Notes under the pieces: generated by a model
The model's input: the letters and a program-made list of their open reading frames with translations, nothing else
Databases searched by the model: none
Told to the model about the DNA's origin: nothing
Part shown: positions 42,049 through 58,530 of the stretch, piece by piece
Layout of the letters: every line of letters begins with the position of its first letter
Position numbering within the stretch: position 1 is the first letter of the stretch
Source of the DNA: Paenibacillaceae bacterium
GTDB lineage: Bacteria > Bacillota > Bacilli > Paenibacillales > Paenibacillaceae
Assembly (NCBI GenBank): GCA_004134985.1
Contig: REGQ01000065.1
Location: forward strand, 1-64,000
Length of the DNA: 64,000 nucleotides
Reading direction: 5' to 3'
Position numbers and translations under genes: made by a program

Positions 42049-42252
42049 TCTTGCGCTAACGCTTGCCACAGCTCTTAAATGGTCTCAAATGACCCATTTT
42101 CAACTCTAACGCTTACCACAGCGCTTATTCACCCCTTGGACGGCTAAAATCGTACGATTTTCAATAAATAAGGTGTCTCAGTTTCCTTACAATATTTATG
42201 GGGCTGAATTTCCCTAAATAGCGCCGCTCATCAGCGTTAGAATTTCACATGG
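42049..42252 (+). repeat. Dispersed 205-bp intergenic element, copy A
   Basis: Highly similar over its whole length to 58325-58530 in the same orientation; for example TCTTGCGCTAACGCTTGCCA at the left and CCCTAAATAGCGCCGCTCAT near the right are shared. The left end CTAACGCT and right end AGCGTTAG are inverted repeats. Inside are two copies of a CTAACGCTTGCCACAGCGCT-like motif and a 16-bp perfect palindrome AAAATCGTACGATTTT (42146-42161). No ORF. Confidence 0.9.
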
Positions 42253-42549
42253 CCCGAATTCCACATACTCCCCTTGGTTTGGTCGCGGATCATGGCAACC
42301 ACTAATTTTTAGACGGAGCCAGTTTATCTCTATACACAAAGTTCCTGCAGCAGGGTAATATATTGAATTTCATTATACATTTATTTGGAAAAAAGCGGTA
42401 GTTAGTTGTATAAATTTGTGTGTTAAGGAGCTCTGGAGCTTCAGAGGTGGATATTGTTGGATCGCGCAAACTGAAAGGTCACAGATATAGTAGGGGTTAG
42501 TTCATACCAACACCAATCGCGGATTTTCAATAGTTTCATTGTTAAGATT

Positions 42550-43318
42550 GTCGCGAGCCACACATCCCGTACGGGATATGACCCCGCAAATTAAGACAAG
42601 TACGCAAAAATTCCGAAATTCCAATCCACACATCTCGCACGGGATGTGACTTTGACCAATTTGGAGATGCAATATACACAATTATTTCAATCCACACATC
42701 CCGTACGGGATGTGACGGTTCATGAAGAACACGATGGCCTCCATCCAGAAAATTCAATCCACACATCCCGTACGGGATGTGACTGGGTCGAGCCGGACGC
42801 GTTAAAAAGAAAGAAGCCATTTCAATCCACACATCCCGTACGGGATGTGACCATATCCCCCAAATTGACCTTGTGGCTATCGTTATTTCAATCCACACAT
42901 CCCGTACGGGATGTGACTGGAGGTGGCAGCGCGTCCCGGATCGCATTTGTCATTTCAATCCACACATCCCGTACGGGATGTGACAGCGGTTAAACCGTCG
43001 CTGCCGCCAGATAGTCCGATTTCAATCCACACATCCCGTACGGGATGTGACTAACACTTCGACAGGGTACGACCGATAGTTGGAAATTTCAATCCACACA
43101 TCCCGTACGGGATGTGACCCTTCCTTGTCCATCTTTTACTAAGTCTAACGAATTTCAATCCACACATCCCGTACGGGATGTGACTGGGTGGGGTGAGGCA
43201 CTGGACAGCTGGTACAACATTTCAATCCACACATCCCGTACGGGATGTGACTTTATGTTTATTTAATGTGGCATGAACTACGGTAATTTCAATCCACACA
43301 TCCCGTACGGGATGTGAC
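42550..43318 (-). CRISPR. CRISPR array, 12 repeats and 11 spacers, type I-C-like
   Basis: 33-bp repeats with a central palindrome CATCCCGTACGGGATG and, in the minus direction, the start GTCACATCCCG and end GTGGATTGAAAT typical of type I-C. Repeats end at 42582, 42650, 42716, 42783, 42851, 42917, 42984, 43051, 43118, 43184, 43251 and 43318. Spacers are 33-35 bp. The repeat at 42550-42582 is badly degenerate and the one at 42618-42650 has three changes, which marks the old distal end; the 43318 end is leader-proximal, so transcription is on the minus strand. No cas gene lies in this window. Confidence 0.97.
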
Positions 43319-43490
43319 AGCGATTTTTCGTAAAAAATGCTCGCAAATAGCTAGATCAGCGTGAGAAACTATTTCATTATCTAAATATTGTAAATAAATT
43401 AAAGATATCACTCTTTCGTTTTACATTATAAGGAATTTATTCAGTGCGAATCCCCCGGGGTTTTCATGTGCACTATACATTCGCACCAGC
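43319..43490 (-). promoter_or_regulatory. CRISPR leader with conserved-looking hairpin
   Basis: A+T-rich segment directly before the first (newest) repeat on the minus strand. At its far end GTGCGAAT (43444-43451) and ATTCGCAC (43478-43485) form an inverted repeat enclosing CATGAAAACCCCGGGG in minus orientation. I recall similar GTGCGAA...TTCGCAC hairpins in leaders next to cas2 of type I-C loci, but this is from memory. Confidence 0.65.
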
Positions 43491-43500
43491 CATTTGCAAC

Positions 43501-43536
43501 TTAAATATAAATTCAAAATCCTTCCAAGTCAACAAA
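43501..43536 (-). pseudogene. Possible remnant of the cas2 3' end
   Basis: The minus frame here reads FVDLEGF, stop, IYI, stop. Type I-C Cas2 proteins end in a D-x-E-G-x-L-type tail, so one base change would restore an LEGFLIYI end. It sits exactly where cas2 normally ends, just upstream of the leader hairpin. Only about 11 codons support this, so it is speculative. Confidence 0.25.
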
Positions 43537-43559
43537 ACTAGTGAATACTCACTCGTTAA

Positions 43560-43588
43560 AACAAAAAAGACGAGGGAACCCGCCCTCG
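43560..43588 (-). terminator. Terminator of the ABC/racemase-like operon
   Basis: On the minus strand CGAGGG-CGGGTT-CCCTCG is followed by TCTTTTTTGTTTT. Lies about 60 nt past the stop at 43650 and insulates the CRISPR leader from that operon. Confidence 0.8.
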
Positions 43589-43649
43589 CCTCGCCTCGCC
43601 TTTCCTTTTCTTTCCTTTCCTCGCCTTGCCTTGTTTGCTTACTTGCCGC

Positions 43650-44372
43650 TCAGTATTCCCTATCGAAAAGCCTTCCCCAACCCGTAACGGCTGTCGGTGA
43701 AATATCCAGCATTTTCAGGCATTGCCATACGACAACAGATATCGTGTCTAAAATTAGAATATCCAGTTCCCGCTCCAGTTCCTCCACCAAATGCGCCGCC
43801 CACAAGTTCGTCCCGAAGGTAGTAATCGCCTCAACGCCGGGAACCGCGATCTCACGCACCATCCGCTTGACTGCCGCTTCATCAATAAGCGCGCAGGCAT
43901 AGTTATCTGTCACGCCCAGACATACCGAAGCCTCGCATTGCAGGTCGAGCTTGGCATAGTTGCCGATAATGCGCTCAACGATTTGCTTCTCAGCCGGTGA
44001 GACAATCCCGAATTTCTTCACATTGTAGGCTTTGAATCGCTCATTCAGCGCCAGTACGGAGGTCGTCGCAGGTATCCCCGTTTCTTCCTTGATCTTCTCG
44101 CAGAGCCGGATATCATTTTCAAAACCGACCCAGCCGCCAGATGTTCCATTATAAGCAATGACATCTACCTTGGCATCCGCAAGCTCATAAGCTGCCTCCA
44201 GCATCGGCTCAATGGCAAATTGCGAGGCAGCCTTGGAAGTTAACGTCAGCTCAGTCACCTTGAACCGGGAAAAGTGTGCCGAAACATCAGCGATGCCATG
44301 CAACATCGCGCTGGTAACCGGCTCCAATACGGTATTCGATGAAGGGGTTAGCATGCCGATCCTTTTCTTCAT
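43650..44372 (-). CDS. Maleate isomerase/Asp-Glu racemase superfamily protein lacking both catalytic Cys
   Basis: 240-aa cytoplasmic protein. Fold signs are KRIGMLTPSSNTVLEPVTSA at the start, PATTSVLALNERFKAYNVKK near residue 105 and GIVSPAEKQIVERI near 125. Members normally use two Cys, one in a (G)CTSG loop and one in a SCTN loop. Here the loops read AYNGTSGGWVG (about residue 77) and TTFGTNLWA (about 187), so both are Gly. Arylmalonate decarboxylase lacks only the first. Racemase or isomerase chemistry is therefore unlikely in the usual form. It overlaps the ATPase gene by four bases and belongs to the ureide-region transporter operon. Confidence 0.8.
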   Translation of the reverse strand: MKKRIGMLTPSSNTVLEPVTSAMLHGIADVSAHFSRFKVTELTLTSKAASQFAIEPMLEAAYELADAKVDVIAYNGTSGGWVGFENDIRLCEKIKEETGIPATTSVLALNERFKAYNVKKFGIVSPAEKQIVERIIGNYAKLDLQCEASVCLGVTDNYACALIDEAAVKRMVREIAVPGVEAITTFGTNLWAAHLVEELERELDILILDTISVVVWQCLKMLDISPTAVTGWGRLFDREY

Positions 44373-45163
44373 GATCCTGCCTGACGCCCGGCCGACAGCT
44401 TGGCGAGCTCTCCTTCTTCTTTGAGCAGATCGAGAATCTGACGTTTGTACTGGTTGAATGCATCCGAGGTAATATCGCGCGGACGCGGCAGATCGATTGG
44501 AATCTCCTCCCGTATTTTTCCCGGTCTGCGTGTCATTACGACCACTTTCGTGCCCAAAATTAACGCTTCATCGATGCTGTGCGTAATGAAAATGATCGTA
44601 ATCTTCTGCTTCTCCCAAATTTTCACTAGCTCTTCCTGCATATCCATTTTGGTCTGTGCATCGATCGAGGCGAACGGCTCATCCATCAGAATGACCGAAG
44701 GATTCAGCATCAAGGCGCGGGCGATGCCGACCCGCTGATTCATTCCGCCCGACAGCTCGTACGGATAATGATTTTCAAAGCCCTTCAGCCCAACCATTTC
44801 AATGTATTCCTGCGCTTTCTGTTTGCGTGCCGAGGAGGACACACCGTTAATTTTCAAATGAAAGGAGACGTTCTCCCATACGGGCAGCCAAGGCATCAAT
44901 GTCGGCTGCTGGAAGACGACTCCGCGATCAACGCCCGGCGCATCAATTCGCCTGCCATTCATTTCAACAGTGCCGGAAGTTTGATTCTCGAAACCGGCAA
45001 TCATATTCATCAACGTCGATTTTCCGCACCCGCTCGGCCCGAGAATACATAGAAACTCATTTTGCTCCACCGCAAGATCAACATTGTCTACAGCAACCAG
45101 ACTTGTTTTGCGCTTCGGATCATGGAACGATTTTATAATATTTTTCATCTCGATAAGCGCCAT
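44369..45163 (-). CDS. ABC transporter ATP-binding protein (SsuB/TauB type)
   Basis: 264-aa ATPase of a nitrate/sulfonate/taurine-family importer. Walker A ILGPSGCGKSTLMNMIAG near residue 42, Q-loop GVVFQQPTLMPWLPVWENV, signature LSGGMNQRVGIARAL near 138, Walker B SVILMDEPFASIDAQTK and the H-loop IIFITHSIDEALILGTKV. It is 100 nt after the permease gene and overlaps the racemase-like gene by four bases. The purine-region context suggests that the substrate is a ureide such as allantoin, but sulfonate or pyrimidine-type substrates remain possible. Confidence 0.92.
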   Translation of the reverse strand: MALIEMKNIIKSFHDPKRKTSLVAVDNVDLAVEQNEFLCILGPSGCGKSTLMNMIAGFENQTSGTVEMNGRRIDAPGVDRGVVFQQPTLMPWLPVWENVSFHLKINGVSSSARKQKAQEYIEMVGLKGFENHYPYELSGGMNQRVGIARALMLNPSVILMDEPFASIDAQTKMDMQEELVKIWEKQKITIIFITHSIDEALILGTKVVVMTRRPGKIREEIPIDLPRPRDITSDAFNQYKRQILDLLKEEGELAKLSAGRQAGS

Positions 45164-45263
45164 ATTCCAGTCTCCCTCCCAATAAAACCTCTTGTTCTAT
45201 ATTTCGCATGTCCACACATTATTTCTTTCCGTCATCCTGTCTCTTCGCTCAACTTCACCCGTG

Positions 45264-46070
45264 TTATTTCATGCCTTGCACGGATGTGTTGCGCTGCCAA
45301 TGGAGCACCTTGTCCATCCATTTCTTGATCAGAAAATCCATCAGAAAGCCCATCAGACCGATGCTGGCCATACTTGCCATGACCAAATCATAGCGCAGGA
45401 AGTAATACGAATCCCACAGCACATACCCGAGGCCGCTTTTGACCGCTACCATCTCAGCGGTTACCGTCAACGCCCAGGCAATGCCGATTCCCAGACGCAA
45501 ACCGGTAAAGATCGTCGGCAGCGCCGCAGGCATTATGACATGCCGGATCAGTTTCCAGCCGTTCGCACCCATCATCGAAGCCGCGCGGATTAACGTTTTG
45601 TCCGTTGTTTTGACACCTTGAATCGTGTTCACGACGATCGGGAAGAACGAGCCAAGGAAAACAAGGAAAATTGCTGGCTTGTTCGCAATTCCGAACCAGA
45701 TGATCGCCAGTGGAATCCAGGATACCGGCGGAATGGGCCGCAGCATTTGAATCGTCGGTTCCAGCATCTTCTCCGCAATTCTGGACCAGCCGATTGCCAC
45801 CCCCAACGTAATGCCTGCCACAACGGCAATGGCAAAGCCGAGCATAACGCGCATTCCACTATTCAGCACATCTCTGATCCAAAAACCGCTGTTCACTTCC
45901 GCACTGCCGTTCGTCCCAAAGATCCAGTCCACCATGACCGCAATCACTTTGGTCGGCGCCGGGAACAGTGCTGAAGGAAACAGCCCTGACCGCGAAATGA
46001 TTTCCCATACGATAAAGACCGCAACCGGTACGATGAATCGGAATTTGTTCCGATTCCATAGATTAGTCAT
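45264..46070 (-). CDS. ABC transporter permease (SsuC/TauC type)
   Basis: 268-aa inner-membrane permease with six hydrophobic segments, starting IVPVAVFIVWEIISRSG. The EAA-like loop is KTLIRAASMMGANGWKLIRH near residue 165. The ATG at 46070 overlaps the binding-protein stop by eight bases (ATGACTAA), so translation is coupled; the frame that begins at 46127 lies within that gene. Works with the ATPase at 44369 and the binding protein at 46063. Confidence 0.92.
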   Translation of the reverse strand: MTNLWNRNKFRFIVPVAVFIVWEIISRSGLFPSALFPAPTKVIAVMVDWIFGTNGSAEVNSGFWIRDVLNSGMRVMLGFAIAVVAGITLGVAIGWSRIAEKMLEPTIQMLRPIPPVSWIPLAIIWFGIANKPAIFLVFLGSFFPIVVNTIQGVKTTDKTLIRAASMMGANGWKLIRHVIMPAALPTIFTGLRLGIGIAWALTVTAEMVAVKSGLGYVLWDSYYFLRYDLVMASMASIGLMGFLMDFLIKKWMDKVLHWQRNTSVQGMK

Positions 46071-47133
46071 TGTAACCGAGCTCTTCCTTGGTTTTTCCAG
46101 TGACTTTGGATAAGAAAGTATAGTCAATGTTGTTCCCCACCTTTTCGGATACGTCGGATTGAATATAATTGAGCTCTTTCATCATCGCTACGATCGCTAA
46201 CGCAGACTCCCGATGAATTTTATAATCCGGATATGCATTTTTCAATGCCTCCTTGCCAGTCTCTTCATCCAGCGGAGTGTATTTGTTCACAACATTGATC
46301 CATTCCTCTTTATCGGTATCCAGCTTATCCAGCAGAGCGACTACCCCGCCAACAAATGAAGTCAAATCCTCGGGACGATCCTTGATGACATCCGAACGGG
46401 TAACGATCAGATTGGTCAGCTTGCCGGCTGCCTGATTATAAGGATAAGTGAAATGCACCGCTTGTCCGCTTAATCTTGCTTGTGTAGCGATCGGCTCAAC
46501 CGTCGTGACCATTTCAACCTCGCCTTTTTCAATGGCGACAATATGATCGGCAAAGTTCGGGATGTTCACAATTTGAACGTCGGTTAATGGATCAATGCCA
46601 TTCTTTTTGAACTCACCGCGCATTTGAATATCCTGTGCGCTTCCGCGGGATGCTCCAATACGAAATGGTTTGCCGTTATTTTTGAAGTCCTGAATGATCT
46701 TTTTGAATCCTTCCCAATCATCCGTCTCCAATCCCAGACTTTTATGAGCCAACAAATCCGTACCGCCGTTCACCTGTCCCGAGATCGGCACAATATCCAG
46801 ATCCTTGCCTACTGCGGTTATATAGTGCAGATACGTAATTTGTGCGGCATCAATGCTTTTGGACACAAGCGCCGTCAATACATCATTGCCGGAAGCGAAG
46901 CTGGACAGCTCCACATTCAGATCGTCCGTCAATTCCGGCAGCAAAGTCATCGGGTAGGACATGACGCTTTTGGCGTATCCCACTTTAAGAATCGGATTTG
47001 CTTTTGGAGGCGCGGCCTTATCCCCCTCGCCTGCTGCGGCTGGCTTACTCGAATCCGTTGCATTTCCACATGCAGCCAGCAAAACCATGATTAATGCCAA
47101 CGCTGCGATTGTCCCTCGTTTTAATACTTTCAT
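46063..47133 (-). CDS. ABC substrate-binding lipoprotein (SsuA/NMT1-like)
   Basis: 356-aa lipoprotein; lipobox LLAACG puts the Cys near residue 22, followed by a Ser/Ala/Lys-rich linker. The body is an NMT1/OpuAC-like binding protein (ILKVGYAKSVMSYPMTLLPE, IDAAQITYLHYITAVGKDLD, IGASRGSAQDIQMRGEF). The ATG at 47133 follows GGGGTAGG. First gene of the four-gene transporter operon; a TGTTA-N7-TGACA dyad at 47316 lies 180 nt upstream. The family binds nitrate, sulfonates, thiamine precursors and similar small molecules. Ureide transport here is inference from context. Confidence 0.9.
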   Translation of the reverse strand: MKVLKRGTIAALALIMVLLAACGNATDSSKPAAAGEGDKAAPPKANPILKVGYAKSVMSYPMTLLPELTDDLNVELSSFASGNDVLTALVSKSIDAAQITYLHYITAVGKDLDIVPISGQVNGGTDLLAHKSLGLETDDWEGFKKIIQDFKNNGKPFRIGASRGSAQDIQMRGEFKKNGIDPLTDVQIVNIPNFADHIVAIEKGEVEMVTTVEPIATQARLSGQAVHFTYPYNQAAGKLTNLIVTRSDVIKDRPEDLTSFVGGVVALLDKLDTDKEEWINVVNKYTPLDEETGKEALKNAYPDYKIHRESALAIVAMMKELNYIQSDVSEKVGNNIDYTFLSKVTGKTKEELGYND

Positions 47134-47312
47134 TGTTGACCTACCCCTTTTCATCATGTTAGTTATAATAACATATTCGTGCTATACCTAACATTATGAA
47201 CATGATCGCGCTATTTGTCATTAGCAACATTCAACAAAATAACCTGAATCGTTTAGGCCAAACGCACAATAGTAATACTAAAATGCACCTGCACACGATT
47301 CCAACTCAGGAT

Positions 47313-47335
47313 TAATGTTATATTACATGACATTA
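47313..47335. promoter_or_regulatory. Dyad operator in front of the ABC operon
   Basis: TTAATGTTA and TGACATTAA separated by seven bases. Same core (TGTTA-N7-TRACA) and similar TTAA flanks as at 51537-51559 before pucR, and a shorter copy at 51382-51398 before allantoinase. Confidence 0.6.
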
Positions 47336-47343
47336 ACCCTATC

Positions 47344-47395
47344 AAAAAAAGCCGAGCACCTCTCTCTCGAATGAACAAGAAAGAAGCTGCCCAGC
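47344..47395 (-). terminator. Terminator of the allantoin operon
   Basis: On the minus strand GCTGGGCAGCTT pairs with GAGGTGCTCGGC (with G-U pairs) and is followed by seven T's. About 17 nt past the aminotransferase stop. Confidence 0.75.
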
Positions 47396-47411
47396 AAACA
47401 AAAAACCTGAT

Positions 47412-48662
47412 CTAAACGTAAATCATGGACGATCTCGCTTCCACATAGACATCCAGCGCAGCTTGCAGCGCGCGTCCCGCATCAACCTTGGCTTTGTGTC
47501 GGATGAGAACCGCCTCCAACGCACCTAACACCGTCAACACATTTTTTTGGCTGCAGCTGTATCCCATCGTACCTATTCGCCATATTTTTCCTTTCAGGGG
47601 GCCAAAGGAAGTAGCGATTTCAACCTTGAACTCCTGCAGCAGCATACGAATGACAGCGTCCCCGTCAATCCCTTCGGGAATCTGAACACAGGTGACCACC
47701 GGCAGCTTGCATCCAGCATCGCCAAACAACTTCAACCCCATCGCCTCCAGTCCGGCGAGCAGCGCCCGCTCGTGAAGCTTGTGACGGCCAAAACGTTCCT
47801 GAAGACCTTCCTCCAGCGTAATCCGCAACCCTTCCCGCAGCGCATACAGCATGGATGTCGCTTCCGTATGATGATTTAATCTGCGGGGACCCCAATAATC
47901 CATCAATTGGCTCAAGTCAAAATAATTGCTGCGAATAATTACGCCTGAACCATTCCTGTCCACCGACGCATCGCGAATGCCCCGCTCTACATTTTTGCGC
48001 CTGTGGATCTTTTCCTCTGCCCGCTCATTGAACGTAATTGGCGCCATTCCTGCAGGAACTGACAAGCATTTCTGCGTGCCGCCGATGACAGCATCAAACA
48101 TCCATTCATCCACACGCACATCAGCCCCGCCTATCGTAGCTACAGCATCGACAACGAACAGGCTGCCAAGCTCCCGGCATGCCCGGCCAATATCCCGCAG
48201 CGGCTGCATTCGTCCGGTAGAGGTTTCACCATGAACCAGCGCAACAATATCCGGACGCTCCAGCTTCATCTTCTCAATAACTTGTTCCGGATCAAATACC
48301 TTCCCCCATTCCTGCTCCATCACCACGACGTTCGCACCGCAGCGCTCCGATATTTCCGCCAGCAGATGGCCAAATCGTCCGTATATCGGCACCAGCACCT
48401 TGTCTCCCGGCTCAATTAAACTGACCAAGACCGCTTCAATGCCAGAGCGCGACGTTCCGTCAACAGGAAAGGCCTGATGATTGGCAGTCTGGAACAACTC
48501 CCGCAGCATCGCCATCGTTTCATTCATCATCTCAGTAAATTCCGGATCAAACTGTCCCAGGATCGGGGAAGCCATCGCCCGCAGCACACGCGGATCAACC
48601 TCCACAGGTCCGGGGGTCATAATGGTGCGCGCAGTCGGCGCCAATTCTCGATACCGTCTCAT
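47412..48662 (-). CDS. pucG: Aminotransferase class V, PucG-like (ureidoglycine-glyoxylate type)
   Basis: 416-aa PLP enzyme of the alanine-glyoxylate family. PucG moves the amino group of ureidoglycine to glyoxylate, giving glycine, late in purine breakdown. Seen: TARTIMTPGPVEVDPRVLRA at the N-terminus, SRSGIEAVLVSLIEPGDKV, HGETSTGRMQPLRD, VDAVATIGGADV and the PLP-Lys in VIGGTQKCLSVPAGMAP near residue 195. ATG 48662 overlaps the amidohydrolase stop (TGATG). Its place after allantoinase and allantoate amidohydrolase favours PucG over a plain serine- or alanine-glyoxylate enzyme. Confidence 0.9.
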   Translation of the reverse strand: MRRYRELAPTARTIMTPGPVEVDPRVLRAMASPILGQFDPEFTEMMNETMAMLRELFQTANHQAFPVDGTSRSGIEAVLVSLIEPGDKVLVPIYGRFGHLLAEISERCGANVVVMEQEWGKVFDPEQVIEKMKLERPDIVALVHGETSTGRMQPLRDIGRACRELGSLFVVDAVATIGGADVRVDEWMFDAVIGGTQKCLSVPAGMAPITFNERAEEKIHRRKNVERGIRDASVDRNGSGVIIRSNYFDLSQLMDYWGPRRLNHHTEATSMLYALREGLRITLEEGLQERFGRHKLHERALLAGLEAMGLKLFGDAGCKLPVVTCVQIPEGIDGDAVIRMLLQEFKVEIATSFGPLKGKIWRIGTMGYSCSQKNVLTVLGALEAVLIRHKAKVDAGRALQAALDVYVEARSSMIYV

Positions 48663-49945
48663 CAATTTCCCTCCTTATAGCCATAAAAGTACAGCCATTC
48701 CGCCAACGCCGCCGCACCATTGGCAAGATGCAGCGGATCACTGTATTCCAGCGGCGAATGGCTGATGCCGTCTTTGCTCGGGACGAACAGCATTGTCGTC
48801 GGACAGATGGAGCTGAGCATTTGCGCATCATGCCCGGCACCGCTGAACATCGTCCGGCAGGAGAGTCCACGTGCCGCGCAAATCGAAGCCAGCGTCCCAT
48901 TCATCTCCCGATCCATGCGGACCGGCTGACTGCTCACCCACTCATCAATGTCCGCGATCAGACCTCTGCGCGCTGCGATCTCGAAGAAAGCAAGCTTCAT
49001 CCGTTCCGAGAAACGTCCCAACACATGGGCATCACTATCACGAATATCAACCTTGAAGTGCACCTCGCCGGAAATCACATTGGACATGTTCGGCACAGCT
49101 GTCAGCTGGCCAGTCGTAGCGACGAAGGGCTCCGCTTCCTGAAAAGCCGCCGTCTCAAGCCAACTGATCATTTCACAAGCGCCAGCCAGCGCGTCCCTTC
49201 GCAATCTCATAGGCGTCGTACCCGCATGGTTCGTCGCACCCTTCAACCGAACGGCAAAACGTTTTTGCCCAACAATGCCTTCCACGATGCCAACCGACTT
49301 CTGTTCCCGTTCCAGAATAATGCCCTGTTCGATGTGCAATTCAATGAACCCCGCAAGATCTTTCCGAAGCGGAGAACGGTACCGGTTCATGCCAAATCCG
49401 GCAAGATGCATCGCATCCGAAAGGGGAATATCATCGTTATCCCGCACGGATGGGACATTATTCTTATCGAAGCGTCCGGTGATGTTGCCCGATCCCCAAT
49501 AAGTGAGCGGAAACCGGCTGCCCTCTTCTTCACACAGCGAGACGACCTCGATCGTCCTTGCCGGAGGGCCGAACCGCTTGCGCAAATATTGTAAAGCGAT
49601 CACCCCGGCCAAAATGCCGTAAGCACCGTCATACTTACCGCCGCAGACTACCGTATCGAGATGAGAACCCGTCAGCAGTGTGCCTCGCTGCGAACCGTCC
49701 CCTTCCAGTCTGCCGAACAAATTGCCGCAATCATCATAGTACGTTTGAAGTCCGGCCGCTCCCATCCTTCCGGCGAGCGCTTGCTGCGCGGCAACCCACG
49801 CATCGCTGTACAGCAGCCGTGTAACGCCTCCCTGATCATCCTTGCCATATGACGCCAACCATTCAACCGCTTGTTCAATCTCTTCAGCAAACTGCAGGCG
49901 ATCCTCCTCTGACACTTGCAGTTCGTTTGTATATTCACCCGCCAT
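48662..49945 (-). CDS. allC: Allantoate amidohydrolase (M20 family Zn hydrolase)
   Basis: 427-aa metal enzyme that hydrolyses allantoate to ureidoglycine, CO2 and ammonia. Metal ligands: His and Asp in TGSHLDTVVCGGKYDGAYGI near residue 95, Glu in SLCEEEGSRFPLTYWGSG near 140, His in IELHIEQGIILERE near 205 and His in SGAGHDAQMLSSI near 390. The dimerisation insert GATNHAGTTPMRLRRDAL is also typical. Hydantoinase-type carbamoylases are close relatives, but the allantoinase before it and PucG after it fix the pathway. AGGGTG-type site before the ATG. B. subtilis names it pucF. Confidence 0.9.
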   Translation of the reverse strand: MAGEYTNELQVSEEDRLQFAEEIEQAVEWLASYGKDDQGGVTRLLYSDAWVAAQQALAGRMGAAGLQTYYDDCGNLFGRLEGDGSQRGTLLTGSHLDTVVCGGKYDGAYGILAGVIALQYLRKRFGPPARTIEVVSLCEEEGSRFPLTYWGSGNITGRFDKNNVPSVRDNDDIPLSDAMHLAGFGMNRYRSPLRKDLAGFIELHIEQGIILEREQKSVGIVEGIVGQKRFAVRLKGATNHAGTTPMRLRRDALAGACEMISWLETAAFQEAEPFVATTGQLTAVPNMSNVISGEVHFKVDIRDSDAHVLGRFSERMKLAFFEIAARRGLIADIDEWVSSQPVRMDREMNGTLASICAARGLSCRTMFSGAGHDAQMLSSICPTTMLFVPSKDGISHSPLEYSDPLHLANGAAALAEWLYFYGYKEGN

Positions 49946-51358: not shown

Positions 51359-51381
51359 CAAGCACCCCCACTCTATCTTAT

Positions 51382-51398: not shown

Positions 51399-51536
51399 CA
51401 AATTGCGATTATTGATTTTATATTAGCATATCCACCTTTCATTTCAATATAAATTGTAAACAATCATCTCACAACTTTTTGTTCAACTTGCACATTTAGC
51501 CCAATTACAGTACATTTATAATCAACAAAACAAGAT

Positions 51537-51559
51537 TAATGTTATTATATATAACATTA
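51537..51559. promoter_or_regulatory. Dyad operator at the pucR promoter
   Basis: TTAATGTTA and TAACATTAA separated by seven bases, a perfect inverted repeat ending 8 nt before the AGGGGTGAG ribosome-binding site of pucR. Its place over the translation start region suits autoregulation. Confidence 0.65.
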
Positions 51560-51582
51560 AATGAAGTAGGGGTGAGATGGAA

Positions 51583-53223
51583 ATGAAACTACAGGATTTA
51601 TTTCAACTTCCCATATATCAAAATGCCCGTGTGATAGCCGGGCGCAGCGGACTGAACCGCCTCGTCAAATCGGTGAACATGATGGATGCGCCGGATATTG
51701 CCGATTATTTAAAAGCCGATGTGCTGCTCTTGACAACCGGTTATGCAATTCGCGATCATCCGGATGAACTGTACAGGCTTGTACAGCATATGACCCAATC
51801 GGGCTGCGCAGGATTAGGAATTAAGACCAAGCGCTTCCTGAACGAGATTCCCCAGCAGGTGCTTGACCTGGCTGATGCGAATCACTTCCCCGTTATTGAG
51901 CTTTCACTCGACTACTCGCTGGGCGAATTGCTGCATGAATCATTGAGCTATATGGTAGAAAGACATAACGAACATCTCCGTTACGCCTTGAAAACGCATC
52001 GCGACTTTTCCCAAATGGTCATTCAGGGACAAAATATCGCTTCCATCATCAATGCATTATCTCCACTGGTCGGAGGCACCGTTCTGCTAATTGACGGCCG
52101 CTTGCAGACGATCGCCAGCTCAGGCGCAATCGCCCCATTGCTGGAAGTCCAACTGCAGCGGGTCGCACAGCATCTGCTGACACTGAAAGGAGAGTACAGC
52201 TCCCCATTTATCCGGTTATGTCCGTTATCCGGCGACCCGTCGCACTATGCGGAGGCATTATTTTATCGCATTGGACTGCCCCAACAAACCTGCTTTCTCA
52301 TTGTCGTTGCCGCACAGCTTGATGATGACGCCTCACTTCCCAAGCTCGCTTTGGAGCAGGCGGCGAATGTCATTGGGTTCGAATTGATGAAGCAACAGGC
52401 AGTCAAGGAAAAGTCACGCCGCTACAAAAATGAATTTTGCGAGGATTTGGTGGAAGGACGTTTTCACTCTGCCGCTGAAATGATTCACCAAGGGAAACGG
52501 TACGGACTTCAGGAACCCTATCCTTGCCTTGGCATCGTGTGCAAAGTCGACGACGCGGCCGACACAGCCGGTGACCATGTATACAGCAAGCGAGATCATA
52601 TCTATGGCCATATCAAAAGGATGCTGGTTCAATTCCAGCAGCCCTACATCCTCTTTAATAAAAAAGATCTGTTCGTTATTTTGCTCAAATGGGAACAGAA
52701 CCTGCCGATGCAGGAATACCAGCTTTCAGAGCGGCTGCTTCAATTCCAGGAAAAGCTTTATCAAGCGGACCGGATTTCCATGTCGTTTGGCATCGGCAAC
52801 CCGGTTGAGCATTTAACCCTCATTCCCAATACGTATAACGAGGCGCTGGGTGCGCTTACGATGGGATATAAATCACGCCAAACCCGATTTATCCAATCCT
52901 ACCGCGCCAAAGAAGCTGTCGAACTACTGAAGATGATCCCCCGGGAAGCGCTGCAAGACTTCTATGAGGAATCGTTCCATCTGTTGGCTGATCTGGAGAC
53001 ACGGGAGCGAGAAGAGCTGATGAATACCGTACTTGTCTACTTGGAAACCCATGGGCAAATTGCCGAGACATCCAAGCGGCTGTTCGTCCACCGGAATACA
53101 GTCGCCTATCGGATCAACAAATTTGAACAACTCACCCATCGCAACCTTCGCGATGCCAACGATTCCATGCGCTTCCGACTCGCCTTCCTGACCGATAAAA
53201 TATTGCGGGATATCCCGCAGTAG
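51583..53223 (+). CDS. pucR: PucR family transcriptional regulator
   Basis: 546-aa regulator of purine degradation. The N-terminal PucR domain covers about residues 1-125 (MKLQDLFQLPIYQNARVIAG, LKADVLLLTTGYAIRDHPDE), a GAF-like/GGDEF-like middle follows, and the C-terminal helix-turn-helix is in HGQIAETSKRLFVHRNTVAY near 495. ATG 51583 is chosen because AGGGGTGAG ends 6 nt before it; ATG 51577 is directly adjacent. In B. subtilis PucR responds to ureides and switches on the puc genes. Here it is divergent from allB and likely binds the TGTTA-N7-TAACA dyads. Confidence 0.93.
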   Translation: MKLQDLFQLPIYQNARVIAGRSGLNRLVKSVNMMDAPDIADYLKADVLLLTTGYAIRDHPDELYRLVQHMTQSGCAGLGIKTKRFLNEIPQQVLDLADANHFPVIELSLDYSLGELLHESLSYMVERHNEHLRYALKTHRDFSQMVIQGQNIASIINALSPLVGGTVLLIDGRLQTIASSGAIAPLLEVQLQRVAQHLLTLKGEYSSPFIRLCPLSGDPSHYAEALFYRIGLPQQTCFLIVVAAQLDDDASLPKLALEQAANVIGFELMKQQAVKEKSRRYKNEFCEDLVEGRFHSAAEMIHQGKRYGLQEPYPCLGIVCKVDDAADTAGDHVYSKRDHIYGHIKRMLVQFQQPYILFNKKDLFVILLKWEQNLPMQEYQLSERLLQFQEKLYQADRISMSFGIGNPVEHLTLIPNTYNEALGALTMGYKSRQTRFIQSYRAKEAVELLKMIPREALQDFYEESFHLLADLETREREELMNTVLVYLETHGQIAETSKRLFVHRNTVAYRINKFEQLTHRNLRDANDSMRFRLAFLTDKILRDIPQ

Positions 53224-53349
53224 GCTTGTATTCTTTAATCTATCCGGCAATCAGCGGCACGTTTGTCACCATTACATTTGTAACTATTAAACCCGTTGGA
53301 GGGTTGGCATACTGGAATTAAGCAAATGGACGAAATGGAGGCCAACGCA

Positions 53350-54294
53350 ATGACGATTGTCTCAATGAACAATATTGTGAAACGTTACGGGAACCATCTT
53401 GCGCTTGACCATATTGATTTGGAGATCAGAGCCGGAGAAGTATTAGGGTTGCTCGGCCCAAACGGCGCAGGCAAAACGACGCTCATCCATGCGCTCGCTG
53501 GGCTCATCGGAACTGATTTCGGGAGCATCCAACTGTTCGGTCAGCGCCACGGGCGCAATAATCTTGCGATCAAACGCAGACTTGGGCTGGTTACGCAGGA
53601 GGTTACGATCTTCGATGACCTGACTGCGCAAGAGAATCTGGCTTTCTTTGGCGGCATTTATGGGCTCAAGGGCGCTGATCTTAAACAACGTATCCACGAA
53701 ACCCTTGCGTTTGTCGGTTTAACTGACCGGGCAAGCAAACGACCCACGAAATTTTCTGGGGGGATGAAGCGGCGCTTGAATATTGCCTGCTCCATTATCC
53801 ATCAGCCTGAGCTGCTTATTATGGATGAGCCTACCGTAGGCATCGACCCTCAATCTCGCAATCACATTTTGGAATCGGTGCGTGAACTGCAGCGAAGAGG
53901 CACTACGATCCTGTATACGACCCACTACATGGAGGAGATTCAAAACCTTGCCTCCCGAGTGGTCATTCTGGATCAAGGACATGTTATTGCACAGGGCACA
54001 ATTGCGGATTTAGTCAACAATATTAAGCACGAAGAAAAGATCAAACTGGAAGTCTCGGAGTTGTCAGAGGAGCTGATTGCGAAGATCAGGCAGCTTGACG
54101 GCGTGAAGATGGTCGTGCAGGAAGGCACAGCGCTTCATATTATTTCACGCTCCGGGGCAGGCAATCTGGACCGCGTGCTCTCCTTCGCAAGGCAGGCGGG
54201 CGGCGTAAGAGCGATTCATGCCGAAAAACCATCACTAGAAGACGTATTCCTTACACTGACCGGGAAACAATTGCGCGACAGTGAGGGGGAGTAA
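53350..54294 (+). CDS. ABC exporter ATPase, LnrL/YfiL-like
   Basis: 314-aa ATPase of an ABC-2 exporter. Walker A LLGPNGAGKTTLIHALAG near residue 38, Q-loop GLVTQEVTIFDDLTAQEN, signature FSGGMKRRLNIACSI near 140, Walker B LLIMDEPTVGIDPQSR near 158 and TTHYMEEIQNLASRVVILD; a C-terminal domain of about 80 residues follows. ATG 53350 has GGAGG 8 nt upstream. With the two permeases and the kinase-regulator pair downstream it matches the yfiJKLMN (lnr) set that in B. subtilis gives resistance to linearmycin polyenes. Confidence 0.9.
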   Translation: MTIVSMNNIVKRYGNHLALDHIDLEIRAGEVLGLLGPNGAGKTTLIHALAGLIGTDFGSIQLFGQRHGRNNLAIKRRLGLVTQEVTIFDDLTAQENLAFFGGIYGLKGADLKQRIHETLAFVGLTDRASKRPTKFSGGMKRRLNIACSIIHQPELLIMDEPTVGIDPQSRNHILESVRELQRRGTTILYTTHYMEEIQNLASRVVILDQGHVIAQGTIADLVNNIKHEEKIKLEVSELSEELIAKIRQLDGVKMVVQEGTALHIISRSGAGNLDRVLSFARQAGGVRAIHAEKPSLEDVFLTLTGKQLRDSEGE

Positions 54295-54296
54295 TC

Positions 54297-55034
54297 ATGT
54301 TTATGCTTAAAATGAGTTACTATTCCTTGCTGCGCATGCTGCGCGAGCCCATCGGGCCGCTGCTCCTCGTCGTCCTGCCATTAGTTATTATCTCCATACT
54401 CGGCATCGTATTGACCGGACAACTGTCCGAGCTTGAAGGCGTCCCCCGATTCGATTGGACGGCGATTACGACCATAATTGCTGTTCAGTTTTTTGGCGGC
54501 AGTTACTTAATGAGCTACTTAAACGATGATCTGCTGCAAACGCGGAAATGGCGAATTCGCACGCTCCCTTTAAATATCGCAGTCTATTCCAGTTCCCTTG
54601 TGCTGGCCTGCACATTGTTCAGCACGCTGCAGGGAGCCGTCATGGTACTGTTTACGAAATGGGTATTCGGCGTACAATGGGGAAATTTGGGATGGGTATT
54701 GCTTGTTCTGCTTATTTTCTCGCTTCTGTCGCAATTTGCCCACCTCATTCTTGTTTTGTCCGTAAAAAGCGCAAAACTGGCCGAGCGGTTGTCTGAAGTA
54801 ATCGGACTGGGCTTTCTTGCTTTAACGGGAATTATGTTCCCTCTTCCTAATAACGGTTTCTTTCATTTCATGGCTACGTATGGAAATCCGGTGGGACTGG
54901 GGCAAATGGCTATTCTCGAAAAATTTGACGGCGGCAAGCAAAGCGAGGCCCATCTCGCGATCCTGTTGCTGCTAGCCGTGACAGCCCTCTTGATCATCAT
55001 CAGCGCTGGGCTCGGGAGGAGGAAGCTGGTATGA
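54297..55034 (+). CDS. ABC-2 type permease, LnrM/YfiM-like
   Basis: 245-aa membrane protein with six hydrophobic segments (PLLLVVLPLVIISILGIVLT first; LLLLAVTALLIIISAGLG last). Starts 2 nt after the ATPase stop and overlaps the next permease by four bases (ATGA). Forms the membrane pore with the next gene's product. The order matches yfiM. Confidence 0.87.
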   Translation: MFMLKMSYYSLLRMLREPIGPLLLVVLPLVIISILGIVLTGQLSELEGVPRFDWTAITTIIAVQFFGGSYLMSYLNDDLLQTRKWRIRTLPLNIAVYSSSLVLACTLFSTLQGAVMVLFTKWVFGVQWGNLGWVLLVLLIFSLLSQFAHLILVLSVKSAKLAERLSEVIGLGFLALTGIMFPLPNNGFFHFMATYGNPVGLGQMAILEKFDGGKQSEAHLAILLLLAVTALLIIISAGLGRRKLV

Positions 55035-55717
55035 CGCTATTTGCCTTCGCTTTAATCCGAAGCGTCCGCAGCGTGGCGAATCTCATCTTGCTAGCCGTTT
55101 TTCCATTGGCTGTTATTTTTCTACCTAAGGCGGAATGGGATATTTTCCCCAAGGGATACCAGTATTACGGCATGCTGCTGTTATTTTCAGCTTCCAAGTT
55201 GGTTCATCTGATTATGGAAGACAGGAAGAAGAAAATATTAACCCGCATCGGGGCGGCACCTGTTACCCATTTTCAATATTTATTGCAGAACCTGCTCGCC
55301 TTCTCCCTGCTGCTTATCGTTCAGTGCGCCGTTGTAACCGGGGGCGGTCTGCTTGTGCATGGGAGCCTGCTCGGAAACCCTCTCCAGCTGTTTCTGGTAT
55401 TCAGTTGTTTCTCCCTGACGGCAATCAGCTTTTCCTTGGCCTGGTGCTCCCTGTTCCGTCACCCCGAGTCTTCCATGGCCGTTATGTTCGGGTTCATTAT
55501 GATTATGGCGATGCTTGGCGGAACCTTCGTACCACTTGCCTTCATGCCGGAATTTCTGCAGCGAATCGCAATGTTTGTTCCAACTTACTGGCTGACCACG
55601 GGCATGGAAATGGCCGCAGCAAATGCGTTATTTTCAGAGCTGCTCACTCCCCTGAGTGTGATGCTGCTGTTTTCGATCCTCTTTGTGCTGATTGGCAGCA
55701 GACGAAAACTTGCCTGA
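55031..55717 (+). CDS. ABC-2 type permease, LnrN/YfiN-like
   Basis: 228-aa permease with six hydrophobic segments (LILLAVFPLAVIFLP; FSLLLIVQCAVVTGGGLLV; MFGFIMIMAMLGGTFVPLAF). The ABC-2 signature region FMPEFLQRIAMFVPTYWLTT is visible near residue 175. Translationally coupled to the preceding permease. About 110 nt separate it from the kinase gene. Confidence 0.87.
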   Translation: MTLFAFALIRSVRSVANLILLAVFPLAVIFLPKAEWDIFPKGYQYYGMLLLFSASKLVHLIMEDRKKKILTRIGAAPVTHFQYLLQNLLAFSLLLIVQCAVVTGGGLLVHGSLLGNPLQLFLVFSCFSLTAISFSLAWCSLFRHPESSMAVMFGFIMIMAMLGGTFVPLAFMPEFLQRIAMFVPTYWLTTGMEMAAANALFSELLTPLSVMLLFSILFVLIGSRRKLA

Positions 55718-55829
55718 GCTTCGGGTTTCAGGACGGAGCTCTTTCGCGGCCAGGAGCTCGAAAATATGTTACGATAAAATAGGTTAGGTTACGATAATGG
55801 AAGATGCGCGGTTCGGGAGGATGATGCCC

Positions 55830-56939
55830 ATGATAAGCTATTCCGATCTGTGGACACCCAAATTAGCTACCATATTATGGAGAGGCTTGGCTATGCTTCT
55901 CCTTACTTTGCTTTGGTTTAACGGAATTAATGGTGTGGAGAGCTTTATCGCGCTGCTGCTGCTCGCGATTGTCTCGCTCGCAAGATGGCGGTTTGCGCTG
56001 CCTAGCTGGGCCATCCTGCTGGATCAATTCATATGCGTGATTGCTTATCCTTTCTGGCCGGATGTTTGGTATGCGATGGCGCTGCCGTTGTTTGAAAGCA
56101 CCCGTGCAGGAAAAATCATCTACGCACTCCCCATACCATTTATCCTTATCGGTTACGCGCAAAGCGAGCTGACCCCGACGATGATTGTCCTTTACCTGCT
56201 AGCTCTCTTCGTAGGATGGGTCATCCGCAGCTGGTCCAGGCAGACAGAGCGCTTGCAGAAGCAAGCCGATCAGGAACGGCGCGACCGCTATGAATTGGAA
56301 GCGTTAAAAACCGAGCTCTTAACAGCTCATGTCCACACAGCCCACATGGCAGAATTGACAGAACGCTACCGAATTTCTCAAAAGCTGCATGATGATGTAG
56401 GGCATGAACTGACCGCTGCCCTGTTGGCCCTGCAAGCTTTCGAACAGCTCTGGAAAGAGGATGATCCTCTCGCCGGAGAGATGTTTGATCAGGCTCAGCA
56501 GCGGCTTTCCAACAGCGCAAGTCAACTGCGGGAAACAGTTCACAATATGATTCCTGTGCAGCCGGTCGGGATCCATCGTTTGGAAGAAATATGCCGCTCT
56601 TTCACAGCCTTCCCCATTCATCTGCAAGTTTACGGGGATACTTCTGCCGTTCCGGCTTACCATTGGAACATTCTTGAACCCTGTCTGAAAGAGGCGTTGA
56701 CCAATGCTGCGCGCCACGCTAATGCAACCCATGCGGAAGCTGCACTGGATGTCAGCAGCCACATTGTCCGGTTGAGCGTATACAATGACGGCGTTGACGC
56801 TTCACATCATGGTGAAGGCGTAGGATTGCGAAACCTTCGCCAGCGGGCGCGCGCGGCAGGCGGAAGCGTTACGACCGATGGGTCGAGGGGATTTCGTATT
56901 GTATGTGTGCTGCCGCTCGGAAAGGAGCTGTTCCCTTGA
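55830..56939 (+). CDS. NarL-type sensor histidine kinase, LnrJ/YfiJ-like
   Basis: 369-aa membrane kinase. About five to six hydrophobic segments in the first 130 residues with almost no extracellular loop, as in kinases that sense membrane-active compounds. The HisKA_3 motif RISQKLHDDVGHELTAALLA (phospho-His) is near residue 185 and the ATP-binding domain has LKEALTNAARHANATHAEAA and GVGLRNLRQRARAAGG. ATG 55830 has GGGAGG 9 nt before it; the ATG at 55797 has no such site. Stop overlaps the regulator's TTG start. It probably induces the lnrLMN-like exporter upstream. Confidence 0.9.
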   Translation: MISYSDLWTPKLATILWRGLAMLLLTLLWFNGINGVESFIALLLLAIVSLARWRFALPSWAILLDQFICVIAYPFWPDVWYAMALPLFESTRAGKIIYALPIPFILIGYAQSELTPTMIVLYLLALFVGWVIRSWSRQTERLQKQADQERRDRYELEALKTELLTAHVHTAHMAELTERYRISQKLHDDVGHELTAALLALQAFEQLWKEDDPLAGEMFDQAQQRLSNSASQLRETVHNMIPVQPVGIHRLEEICRSFTAFPIHLQVYGDTSAVPAYHWNILEPCLKEALTNAARHANATHAEAALDVSSHIVRLSVYNDGVDASHHGEGVGLRNLRQRARAAGGSVTTDGSRGFRIVCVLPLGKELFP

Positions 56940-57550
56940 AAATACTCATTGTAGACGACGACCCTCTGGTCTGCCAAAGCTTGCAATTGCTTCTCTCCCG
57001 CGAGGCGGACATGGAAGTGATCGGAACAGCCCATGACGGTGCTGCGGCGATTGCCCGTTGCAAAGCGCAATTGCCTGACATCGTGCTGATGGATATCCGT
57101 ATGCCCGGGATGGACGGCATTCAGGCGACACGACAAATCAAGCAGACTTGGCCAGAGGCCGCTGTCATGATGCTGACTACGTTCCAGGATGAACTGAGCA
57201 TTCGTCAGGCAATAATGGCCGGAGCAGCGGGATATTTGCTTAAATCCACCAAAGTATCGAGCATGGCTCAGCAGCTGCGTACATTGATGTCAGGCTCCTC
57301 TGTATTGGATGCCGCTGTGCTGAAGAAGATCATGGAGCCTGAGAAAGAAGCCAAGGAAGCGATCGCGGAATTAACGCCGCGCGAGAATGATATTCTCGAA
57401 CTGGTGGCACAAGGCTGCTCCAACCGCGAAATTGCCGAACAGCTCTATATCGGCGAAGGCACGGTGCGCAATACACTCTCGATCATCCTGGACAAACTGC
57501 AGGTCAGGGACCGGACACAGCTGGCGATCTATTACTGGAAGCGATTATAA
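56936..57550 (+). CDS. NarL/LuxR-type response regulator, LnrK/YfiK-like
   Basis: 204-aa regulator. Receiver at residues 1-115 (ILIVDDDPLVCQSLQLLL; Asp in IVLMDIRMPGMDGIQATR; Lys in YLLKSTKVSSM) and a LuxR helix-turn-helix over the last 65 residues (LTPRENDILELVAQGCSNRE; GEGTVRNTLSIILDKLQVRD). It starts at TTG 56936, overlapping the kinase stop by four bases, with AAGGAG about 9 nt before. Pairs with the preceding kinase. Confidence 0.92.
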   Translation: MKILIVDDDPLVCQSLQLLLSREADMEVIGTAHDGAAAIARCKAQLPDIVLMDIRMPGMDGIQATRQIKQTWPEAAVMMLTTFQDELSIRQAIMAGAAGYLLKSTKVSSMAQQLRTLMSGSSVLDAAVLKKIMEPEKEAKEAIAELTPRENDILELVAQGCSNREIAEQLYIGEGTVRNTLSIILDKLQVRDRTQLAIYYWKRL

Positions 57551-57729
57551 ATTTTCATATGGCGTATGTTATGCTTCAGCTATGTCAAAGATAGGCAGGT
57601 GCTAAAGCTGGGCGATTCACCCTTGAGTGTGCCATCCGTGAGTGAGTCACCCTTGAGTGAGTATCGCTTGTGGCCTCCCGCTGCTCCGACTGAGCATGCA
57701 ACAAAAAAATGACTTAACAAGGAGAACTA

Positions 57730-58143
57730 ATGATGGGACAAGCAAATCAGAAAATTACTACGTTTTTAACCTTTGAAGGAAATGCTGAAGCGGCAATGAA
57801 CATGTATATGGCTTTGTTCGACGATTCCGAGATCATCAGTATCGTTCGTTATGGAGCGAATGAAACTGGCGTAGAAGGAAGTGTGCAGTTTGCTACCTTT
57901 TCCCTAAACGGTCAACAGTTTATGTGCATCGACAGCAGCGTTAAGCATAAATGGACCTTTACTCCCGCAGTGTCATTGTATGTTGCCTGTCAAACCGAAG
58001 AGGAGATCGATCGGCTCTTTGAAAAGCTATCGCAGGACGGTGCCGTCCTCATGCCGTTAGGTGACTATGGCTTTAGCAAAAAGTTTGGTTGGGTTAACGA
58101 TAAATACGGTGTGTCCTGGCAATTAAATCTTGCAAATCATTAG
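57730..58143 (+). CDS. VOC family protein, PhnB-like
   Basis: 137-aa protein of the glyoxalase/VOC superfamily (PhnB or '3-demethylubiquinone methyltransferase' type). Pattern ITTFLTFEGNAEAAMNMYMA, then VQFATFSLNGQQFMCIDSS and the C-terminal SKKFGWVNDKYGVSWQLNL. AAGGAG lies 8 nt before the ATG. Monocistronic, about 180 nt after the regulator gene. The biochemical role of these small proteins is unknown. Confidence 0.88.
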   Translation: MMGQANQKITTFLTFEGNAEAAMNMYMALFDDSEIISIVRYGANETGVEGSVQFATFSLNGQQFMCIDSSVKHKWTFTPAVSLYVACQTEEEIDRLFEKLSQDGAVLMPLGDYGFSKKFGWVNDKYGVSWQLNLANH

Positions 58144-58169
58144 CTCGTACTGGACGGTATTCCGTCTGA

Positions 58170-58238
58170 CAGCCAGACATTCGGACATTCGAGTATCAGG
58201 CAGAAAGCCAACTCGGGTATTTGGAAGTCAGGCTGTCA
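58170..58238. repeat. Inverted repeat after VOC gene
   Basis: CTGACAGCC near 58168-58176 pairs with GGCTGTCAG near 58230-58238 across about 55 nt. No T-run, so termination is uncertain. The rest of 58144-58324 holds no recognisable gene. Confidence 0.4.
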
Positions 58239-58324
58239 GGCACTCAGATAACGCAGGTCATCTTCATCCATTTCATGACGGCTCAAAACCACAATTAGCG
58301 GTTGACGAATGCGAGCGTGCGGGG

Positions 58325-58530
58325 GATCTTGCGCTAACGCTTGCCACAGCGCTTAATTGGCCTCAAATGACCCTTTTGCAACGCTAACGCTCGCCACAGC
58401 GCTTATTCCCCCATGAACGGGTAAAATCGTGCGATTTTCTAGAAATAAGGTGGCTCAGTTTCCTTACAATATTTATGGGGCTGGATTTCCCTAAATAGCG
58501 CCGCTCATCAGCGTTACAATTCCATGCCCC
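58325..58530 (+). repeat. Dispersed 205-bp intergenic element, copy B
   Basis: Second copy of the element at 42049-42252, same orientation. Ends TAACGCT and AGCGTTA are inverted. The palindrome reads AAAATCGTGCGATTTT here (58423-58438), so the inverted arms are kept while the centre differs. It lies between the VOC gene and the 3' end of the A+T-rich ABC exporter gene. Confidence 0.9.

What the first reader, a model, noticed from the sequence alone, without database searches (positions are those of the whole stretch)
42049..58530. Duplicated 205-bp element with inverted ends and a variable-centre hairpin
42049-42252 and 58325-58530 are similar along their full length, 16 kb apart and in the same orientation. 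Both end in CTAACGCT/AGCGTTAG-type inverted repeats. Both keep AAAATCG...CGATTTT arms although the centre differs (TA versus TG), and both contain an internal duplicated CGCTTGCCACAGCGCT-like motif. This fits a MITE or a structured RNA element. One copy is near the CRISPR array, the other beside the A+T-rich exporter.
Basis: seen in the sequence. Interest (0 to 1): 0.72.

Follow-up and report, generated by a model that had tools for sequence, protein, structure and literature searches.

The report
Four-site DNA repeat targeted by transposons
The two similar 205-base stretches are two of roughly ninety copies of a non-coding mobile DNA element of Paenibacillus bacteria, built from four copies of one short motif at rigid 50-base spacings, and every located copy of two unrelated transposons in this genome sits inside that motif.

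Summary
In detail: the copies are 90% identical. They are two of about 90 intergenic copies in a 7.7-Mb Paenibacillus genome. The conserved unit is 183 bp (42057-42239; 58335-58516). It holds four copies of TAACG[C/G]TTGCCACAG..TTA at 0 and +50 (forward) and +132 and +182 (inverted). The same geometry (+-1-2 bp) occurs in 18 other genomes of five genera, although non-motif sequence has drifted to 30-60% identity. A/T content follows one 10-bp lattice through the whole unit.

The RNA reading fails: the two halves do not coevolve, the central hairpin has no compensatory change in 38 copies and is broken in 9, folding energy here is ordinary, and Rfam has no match. The only strong covariation is one motif base shared by all four sites, as expected of a cognate DNA-binding protein.

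Mobility is supported by patchy copy number and by sister-species sites that lack the element. No transposase partner or target duplication was found. All 7 located copies of a Tn5-like IS sit in the motif's loop, and all 9 of an IS110 sit at TAA^CG.

Best reading: a non-autonomous, protein-bound mobile DNA repeat that serves as an IS landing pad; its binding protein is unknown.

The parts
42057..42239 (+). Copy 1: 183-bp four-motif core (TAACG...CGTTA)
   Evidence: Geometry scan and coordinates; 90.5% identical to copy 2
42057..42080 (+). Copy 1 motif M1 (TAACGCTTGCCACAGCTCTTAAAT)
42107..42130 (+). Copy 1 motif M2, exactly +50
42166..42189 (-). Copy 1 motif M3 (inverted, degenerate in this genome), 5' base at +132
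42216..42239 (-). Copy 1 motif M4 (inverted), 5' base at +182
42146..42161 (.). Copy 1 central inverted arms AAAATCGTACGATTTT; not conserved as a base-paired structure
   Evidence: 0 two-sided changes in 38 copies, pair 7 A-C in 9
41950..42020 (+). Copy 1 left flanking module 'A' shared with many copies in this genome
42256..42334 (+). Copy 1 right flanking module 'R' (contains ..TTTTTAGACGGAGCC)
41850..41877 (+). Copy 1 outer end GGACACACGTTCACTAGCGTTTCATCAA, matching the outer inverted end of the longest composite copies
58335..58516 (+). Copy 2: 182-bp four-motif core (1-bp deletion in the centre)
58335..58358 (+). Copy 2 motif M1
58385..58408 (+). Copy 2 motif M2
58443..58466 (-). Copy 2 motif M3 (inverted, degenerate)
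58493..58516 (-). Copy 2 motif M4 (inverted)
58423..58438 (.). Copy 2 central inverted arms AAAATCGTGCGATTTT
58254..58324 (+). Copy 2 left flanking module 'B' (..GACGGCTCAAAACCACAATTAGCGGTTGACGAATGCGAGCG)

Best explanation
The element is a non-coding, non-autonomous mobile DNA repeat of Paenibacillus and its relatives, and it works as double-stranded DNA bound by a protein, not as RNA. Shown: it has four copies of one 24-bp motif at 0, +50, and inverted at +132 and +182; one 10-bp A/T lattice runs through all 183 bp; copies are intergenic and number about 90 here; congeners lack it at orthologous sites. Inferred: a trans-acting protein, most likely a transposase with two binding sites per end, assembles all four sites into one wrapped complex, which is why spacing is kept while sequence drifts. 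Shown, as a second and independent role: the motif is the landing site of insertion sequences. In this genome a Tn5-like IS4-family element inserts into the motif's loop (TTGCCACAG) and an IS110-family element inserts at TAA^CG. In a relative, three copies of a different IS110-family element abut the same motif.
For: Copy number: 40 scored matches at 90% identity or more among 129 candidates; 14 full copies in 1.24 Mb, or about 87 per genome by scaling. Geometry: M2 at exactly +50 in 50 of 50 scorable non-own elements within a +-12 search; M3 mostly at 132/131 and M4 at 182/181. In G086, 30 single-motif seeds give further motif hits only at the predicted offsets, and all 23 distinct elements are complete. 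Protein-site covariation: motif base 6 (G or C) is the same in all four motifs of an element, including the two in direct orientation that cannot pair. Lattice: A/T power at 10.0 bp averages 13.8 (minimum 9.6) in 23 elements, against 1.13 (maximum 4.4) in flanking windows; seen in seven genomes. Mobility: 29 of 199 family genomes positive, from 77 motif copies to 0 within one genus; orthologous sites without the element. IS targeting: 7 of 7 IS4-family ends, 9 of 9 IS110 ends, 3 IS110 copies in G086; families by Pfam.
Against: No autonomous partner was found. Y1_Tnp is absent from this genome, and the Tn5-type dimerisation domain is present only here and as a fragment in G006, not in element-rich G086 or G070. 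Motif resemblance to the IS4-family end is weak (p about 0.02). Exact target-site duplications were not resolved, because in the genomes examined closely the core lies inside a larger genome-specific repeat and the empty sites are too diverged for base-exact junctions. A transposase would not obviously require the fixed 82-bp centre.
Confidence: 0.55

Rival explanations
1. Architectural site: the element is a wrapping site for a host chromosome protein (gyrase, HU or another nucleoid protein), as BIMEs are for gyrase in E. coli. It spread as a repeat because it is tolerated or useful, and the protein is cellular rather than a transposase.
For: 10-bp A/T phasing in register across the dyad; exact total length including the centre; intergenic placement and completeness of all 23 copies examined in G086. 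The published E. coli gyrase motif also shows periodic GC changes, and gyrase cuts BIMEs (PMC6379681).
Against: The gyrase period is 10.75 bp in two flanks of a 130-bp motif, against 10.0-10.1 bp over 183 bp here. Distribution is very patchy: several congeners have none, so it is not a general housekeeping site. Motif base 6 switches between genomes, which fits a lineage-specific protein better than gyrase.
Confidence: 0.22
2. Relic ends of a Tn5-like (IS4-family) transposon: the four motifs are old transposase-binding ends, and the resident IS4-family element is a cousin that recognises them both as end-like and as target. This is one specific version of the transposase reading.
For: The element begins with CTAACG and ends with CGTTAG; the resident IS end shares GCTTGC-ACA with the motif; the IS duplicates TTGCCACAG.
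Against: Similarity p is about 0.02 for the C-type motif and 0.13 for the G-type. The Tn5-type domain is absent from most element-rich genomes.
Confidence: 0.13
3. Structured RNA: the element is transcribed and folds through its central hairpin or through pairing of its two halves.
For: Inverted-repeat anatomy; low folding energy in the near-palindromic copies of G086 (z about -8) and G006 (z about -5).
Against: Those low energies follow from the inverted motifs. Within-element complementarity of the halves does not exceed between-element complementarity overall in any of seven genomes. No two-sided change in the central arms in 38 copies, and pair 7 is A-C in 9. Folding z of -0.2 and -1.1 in this genome. 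No Rfam hit. The strongest covariation includes pairs in direct orientation that cannot base-pair.
Confidence: 0.06
4. REP/REPIN: pairs of short palindromes moved by a RAYT (Y1 tyrosine) transposase.
For: High copy number, palindromic motif, intergenic, targeted by IS4 and IS110 elements as REPs are (PMC1525189).
Against: No Y1_Tnp domain protein in the genome, while the same search detects it in E. coli and other controls. Unit of 183 bp with four sites at fixed spacing rather than 20-40 bp.
Confidence: 0.04

Closest known systems
Bacterial MITEs (bcr1, RUP, NEMIS/Correia, ERIC, YPAL)
   Same: 70-300 bp, non-coding, inverted ends, high copy, intergenic, patchy between relatives (class described in PMC3733652)
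   Different: Two direct-repeat sites in each half at exact 50-bp spacing, a fixed centre, and a 10-bp A/T lattice kept across genera; no identified transposase or target-site duplication
REP sequences / BIMEs as targets of insertion sequences (Tobes and Pareja 2006, PMC1525189)
   Same: IS4-family and IS110-family elements inserted only in the repeat (ISRm22 10/10; ISPpu9 and ISPpu10 7/7 each), as here 7/7 and 9/9
   Different: The repeat is not a REP: 183-bp four-site unit, no RAYT in the genome, in the Paenibacillus lineage
IS110/IS1111 elements with RNA-guided target choice (IS621 in REPs; PMC11208160, PMC11187229, listed)
   Same: A DEDD transposase (PF01548) with base-exact insertion into a repeated palindromic motif
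   Different: The guide RNA of this IS was not examined; the target is the TAA^CG of this repeat
E. coli gyrase motif and BIME gyrase sites (PMC6379681)
   Same: Long DNA site with periodic GC/AT content; intergenic repeats bound by a wrapping protein
   Different: Period 10.75 bp over 130 bp against about 10.0 bp over 183 bp; no cleavage or binding data here

Membership tests
MITE | Short, non-coding, terminal inverted repeats | tested here: met
   183 bp, TAACG..CGTTA ends; 0 of 23 G086 copies and 2 of 38 own copies overlap an ORF call of 90 aa or more
MITE | High copy number and dispersed | tested here: met
   About 87 copies by scaling; at least 40 matches of 90% identity or more
MITE | Presence/absence at orthologous sites | tested here: met
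   Sites of G086 elements without the element in G077, G205, G215 and others
MITE | Target-site duplication | tested here: inconclusive
   Core lies inside genome-specific larger repeats; 8-bp near-duplications seen by eye at two outer ends only; empty sites too diverged
MITE | Autonomous element with the same ends | tested here: inconclusive
   None in 1.24 Mb of this genome or in the loci read; about 84% of this genome was not read through
REP/REPIN | RAYT (Y1_Tnp, PF01797) in the genome | tested here: not met
   0 matches, controls positive
Structured RNA family | Covariation supporting a helix | tested here: not met
Structured RNA family | Match to a known family | tested here: not met
   Rfam
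Gyrase strong site | About 10.75-bp GC periodicity around a central cleavage region | tested here: not met
   Periodicity present but at 10.0-10.1 bp; reference value from PMC6379681
Gyrase strong site | Gyrase binding or cleavage | not testable with these tools
   Needs Topo-Seq or ChIP
IS landing pad (as REPs) | Most copies of an IS inserted at one fixed position of the repeat | tested here: met
   7/7 and 9/9

The most novel reading that the evidence does not exclude
A class of bacterial DNA element in which a 183-bp, four-site, 10-bp-phased sequence is kept as a wrapped nucleoprotein site by a dedicated, lineage-specific protein. The motif variant and the protein coevolve, and the element doubles as a genome-wide 'safe harbour' that several unrelated insertion sequences have independently come to target.
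Probability: 0.25. Interest if true: 0.8.

Novelty: new variant of a known kind. Interest (0 to 1): 0.6.

Why it matters
Small mobile repeats are common in bacteria. One whose main conserved properties are a binding-site geometry and a DNA-helix lattice, kept across genera while sequence is lost, points to an unidentified DNA-wrapping or transposition protein in Paenibacillus. The observed IS preference (16 of 16 located ends) gives two natural targeting systems with base-exact targets, one of them an IS110-type enzyme, that can be read directly from genomes. It also warns that contig breaks in such assemblies sit at these repeats.

Tried and rejected
Structured RNA (Rfam, mutual information with APC, within/between-element pairing, folding z-scores, arm counts): rejected. 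REP/REPIN: rejected, no Y1_Tnp. Segmental duplication: rejected by copy number. Replichore strand bias in G086: the first positions listed looked one-sided; the full list is mixed. Tn5-like mobiliser: weak end similarity and patchy PF02281, kept as a rival. A Lachnospiraceae MAG hit to the paired motif (L216) is an unrelated tandem repeat without the geometry. The guide RNA of the IS110 was not examined because the interior copies tried gave no right-hand junction.
Full report
WHAT IS THERE. The two stretches are real and alike: 42049-42247 aligns to 58325-58530 at 90.5% over 199 bp, nearly gap-free, with similarity ending sharply near both boundaries. Copy 2 lies between convergent ORFs (57730-58143 + and 58602-60257 -); copy 1 lies beside a real CRISPR array at 42547-43325.

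A FAMILY, NOT A PAIR. The 206-bp query has 40 scored matches at 90% identity or more, out of 129 first-look candidates. In 1.24 Mb read continuously a profile finds 14 full copies and several partial or interrupted ones, so about 87 full copies per genome by scaling. Copies are 90.5% identical on average (85.8-98.9%). Around the core, genome-specific modules recur in different combinations: left A or B, right R, and an outer end GGACAGACGTTCACTAGCGTTGCATAAA in the longest copies. One coreless B+R miniature with about 25-bp inverted ends was also seen. The full composite is therefore longer and mosaic; the core is the constant part.

ANATOMY OF THE CORE. Relatives made the plan clear. In P. sabuli and in other genera the core carries four copies of TAACG[C/G]TTGCCACAG followed by ..GCTTATTT: two forward, two inverted. 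Such elements were read in 18 genomes besides this one, in five genera of the order (kinship). A scan allowing +-12 bp puts M2 at exactly +50 in 50 of 50 scorable non-own elements, M3 at 132 (33), 131 (14) or 130 (1), and M4 at 182 (34), 181 (14), 183 (3) or 180 (1). That scan started from a summed motif score, which favours the geometry. The less biased check is G086, a complete genome: around 30 exact single-motif hits, further motif hits within 260 bp occur only at the predicted offsets, and all 23 distinct elements are complete. In one copy (C6 about 69.2 kb) the 50-bp unit is repeated further, always at 50.

RIGID GEOMETRY DESPITE SEQUENCE DRIFT. Outside the motifs, elements of one genome are on average only 49-69% identical in G006, G086, G070, G024, G003 and G161 (lowest pairs 27-49%), with 0-0.4 gap columns per pair. 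Over 23 G086 elements the overall identity is 0.77 (0.55-0.89), and the length is 183 in most. A/T content follows a 10.0-10.1-bp period through the whole element in seven genomes: mean power 13.8, minimum 9.6 in G086 elements, against 1.13, maximum 4.4, in 92 flanking windows. Spacers alone also exceed shuffled controls at 10.0 bp. The A/T peaks keep the same phase through the dyad (profile), which would explain why the centre length is also fixed (inference). Selection at the moment of transposition could produce the same pattern, so it does not prove that each resident copy is useful to the host.

RNA OR DNA? In 38 sequences below 85% identity the top covariation is motif position 6: G or C, the same in all four motifs of one element (pairs 6-56, 6-178, 56-128, 128-178). 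Pairs 6-56 and 128-178 are in direct orientation and cannot base-pair, so a shared recognition base explains them and an RNA helix does not. Shared ancestry also contributes, since the base is mostly fixed per genome. Left and right halves of the same element are no more complementary overall than halves taken from different elements of the same genome. In 38 own copies the central arms show no two-sided change, and pair 7 is A-C in 9. Folding energy in this genome is ordinary (z -0.2 and -1.1); it is low in G086 and G006 because their inverted motifs are nearly perfect. Rfam has no match. I conclude that the conserved entity is duplex DNA with four protein sites.

MOBILITY. The motif occurs in 29 of 199 sampled genomes of the family, from 77 (here), 69 (G086) and 58 (G006) occurrences down to none in close relatives, and in 0 of 248 other genomes sampled across the phylum. 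The paired motif in named genomes hits P. sabuli, P. harenae and P. montanisoli, plus one unrelated tandem repeat in a Lachnospiraceae MAG. Joined flanks of G086 elements match congeners across the junction: for L176, G077 aligns over query 1707-2066 without the element, as do G205, G105 and G215. Further orthologous stretches contain no motif array. This shows lineage-specific gain (or repeated loss, less likely). Base-exact ends and target duplications could not be resolved. No cognate transposase is known: Y1_Tnp is absent, and the Tn5-type domain occurs here and as a fragment in G006 only.

LANDING PAD. A search with the end of a 1527-bp IS4-family element (Tn5 dimerisation domain) finds 7 end copies genome-wide, and all 7 sit in the motif, in both orientations. 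The copy with both ends visible (C6:69302-70828) shows a 9-bp duplication TTGCCACAG. A search with the end of an IS110-family element finds 9 copies, all directly after CTAA of a motif. In G086 three copies of a different IS110-family element abut the first base of the motif (Pfam). The two searches in this genome used IS ends only, so they did not select for the repeat. Several copies lie at contig ends, where only one junction is visible. The phenomenon is known for REPs: ISRm22 (IS4) 10/10 and ISPpu9 and ISPpu10 (IS110) 7/7 each (PMC1525189).

HOW IT PROBABLY WORKS. Shown: geometry, lattice, shared recognition base, mobility at the species level, IS targeting. Inferred: a protein binds the four motifs and wraps or bends the 183 bp into one complex, and this requirement preserves spacing. 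The simplest protein is a transposase acting in trans, which makes the element MITE-like. A cellular wrapping protein (gyrase-like or nucleoid protein) is the main rival; the published gyrase motif has a 10.75-bp period over 130 bp (PMC6379681), which differs from 10.0. The IS elements are probably secondary users of an abundant, harmless target (inference).

NOVELTY. Searches of the held literature for Paenibacillus repeats, MITEs or REPs found no description of this element; most subscription papers are not held. Mobile intergenic repeats and IS-targeted repeats are known kinds; the four-site, 10-bp-phased architecture is, as far as I could find, new. I rate it a new variant of a known kind.

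Noticed in passing
G000:C6:69302-70828 (about 5.3 kb right of the window end, contig coordinates): IS4-family (Tn5-like) insertion sequence inside a further copy of the element, with 9-bp duplication TTGCCACAG; all 7 located ends of this IS lie in the same motif loop.
   Followed up: yes
L181-L189 (G000): IS110-family element with 9 of 9 located ends inserted exactly after CTAA of the motif; its guide RNA should carry a match to this target.
   Followed up: partly
window 42547-43325: CRISPR array, 12 repeats of about 33 nt (ATTTCAATCCACACATCCCGTACGGGATGTGAC), spacing 66-68; the 134-aa ORF at 42542-42946 overlapping it is probably spurious.
   Followed up: partly
G000:C6:82220-82470: Coreless miniature with about 25-bp inverted ends (GGCACAAAACCAAAATCAGTG..CACTGATTTTTAGGCAGAGCC), flanked by AATTTTAC and AATTCCAC: possibly a separate MITE whose ends frame the B-R composite.
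   Followed up: partly
window 41850-41877; G000:C33:195340; G000:C42:167416: Outer end GGACAGACGTTCACTAGCGTTGCATAAA of the longest composite copies; partner transposase not found.
   Followed up: partly
L020, L003, L009 (G000) left flank: Variable tandem arrays of a unit of about 39 bp (GATCCGGCAAGTTCATCTGGGGCATTACTGGTGGTGGC) next to the core.
   Followed up: no
window 11802-12221: Tandem array of a 50-bp unit, 8.3 copies, G+C-rich (CCTGCGGCCTGGCTACGACTGCAGC...), overlapping several short ORFs.
   Followed up: no
window 28606-28814: Tandem array of a 65-bp unit, 3.2 copies at 96% match.
   Followed up: no
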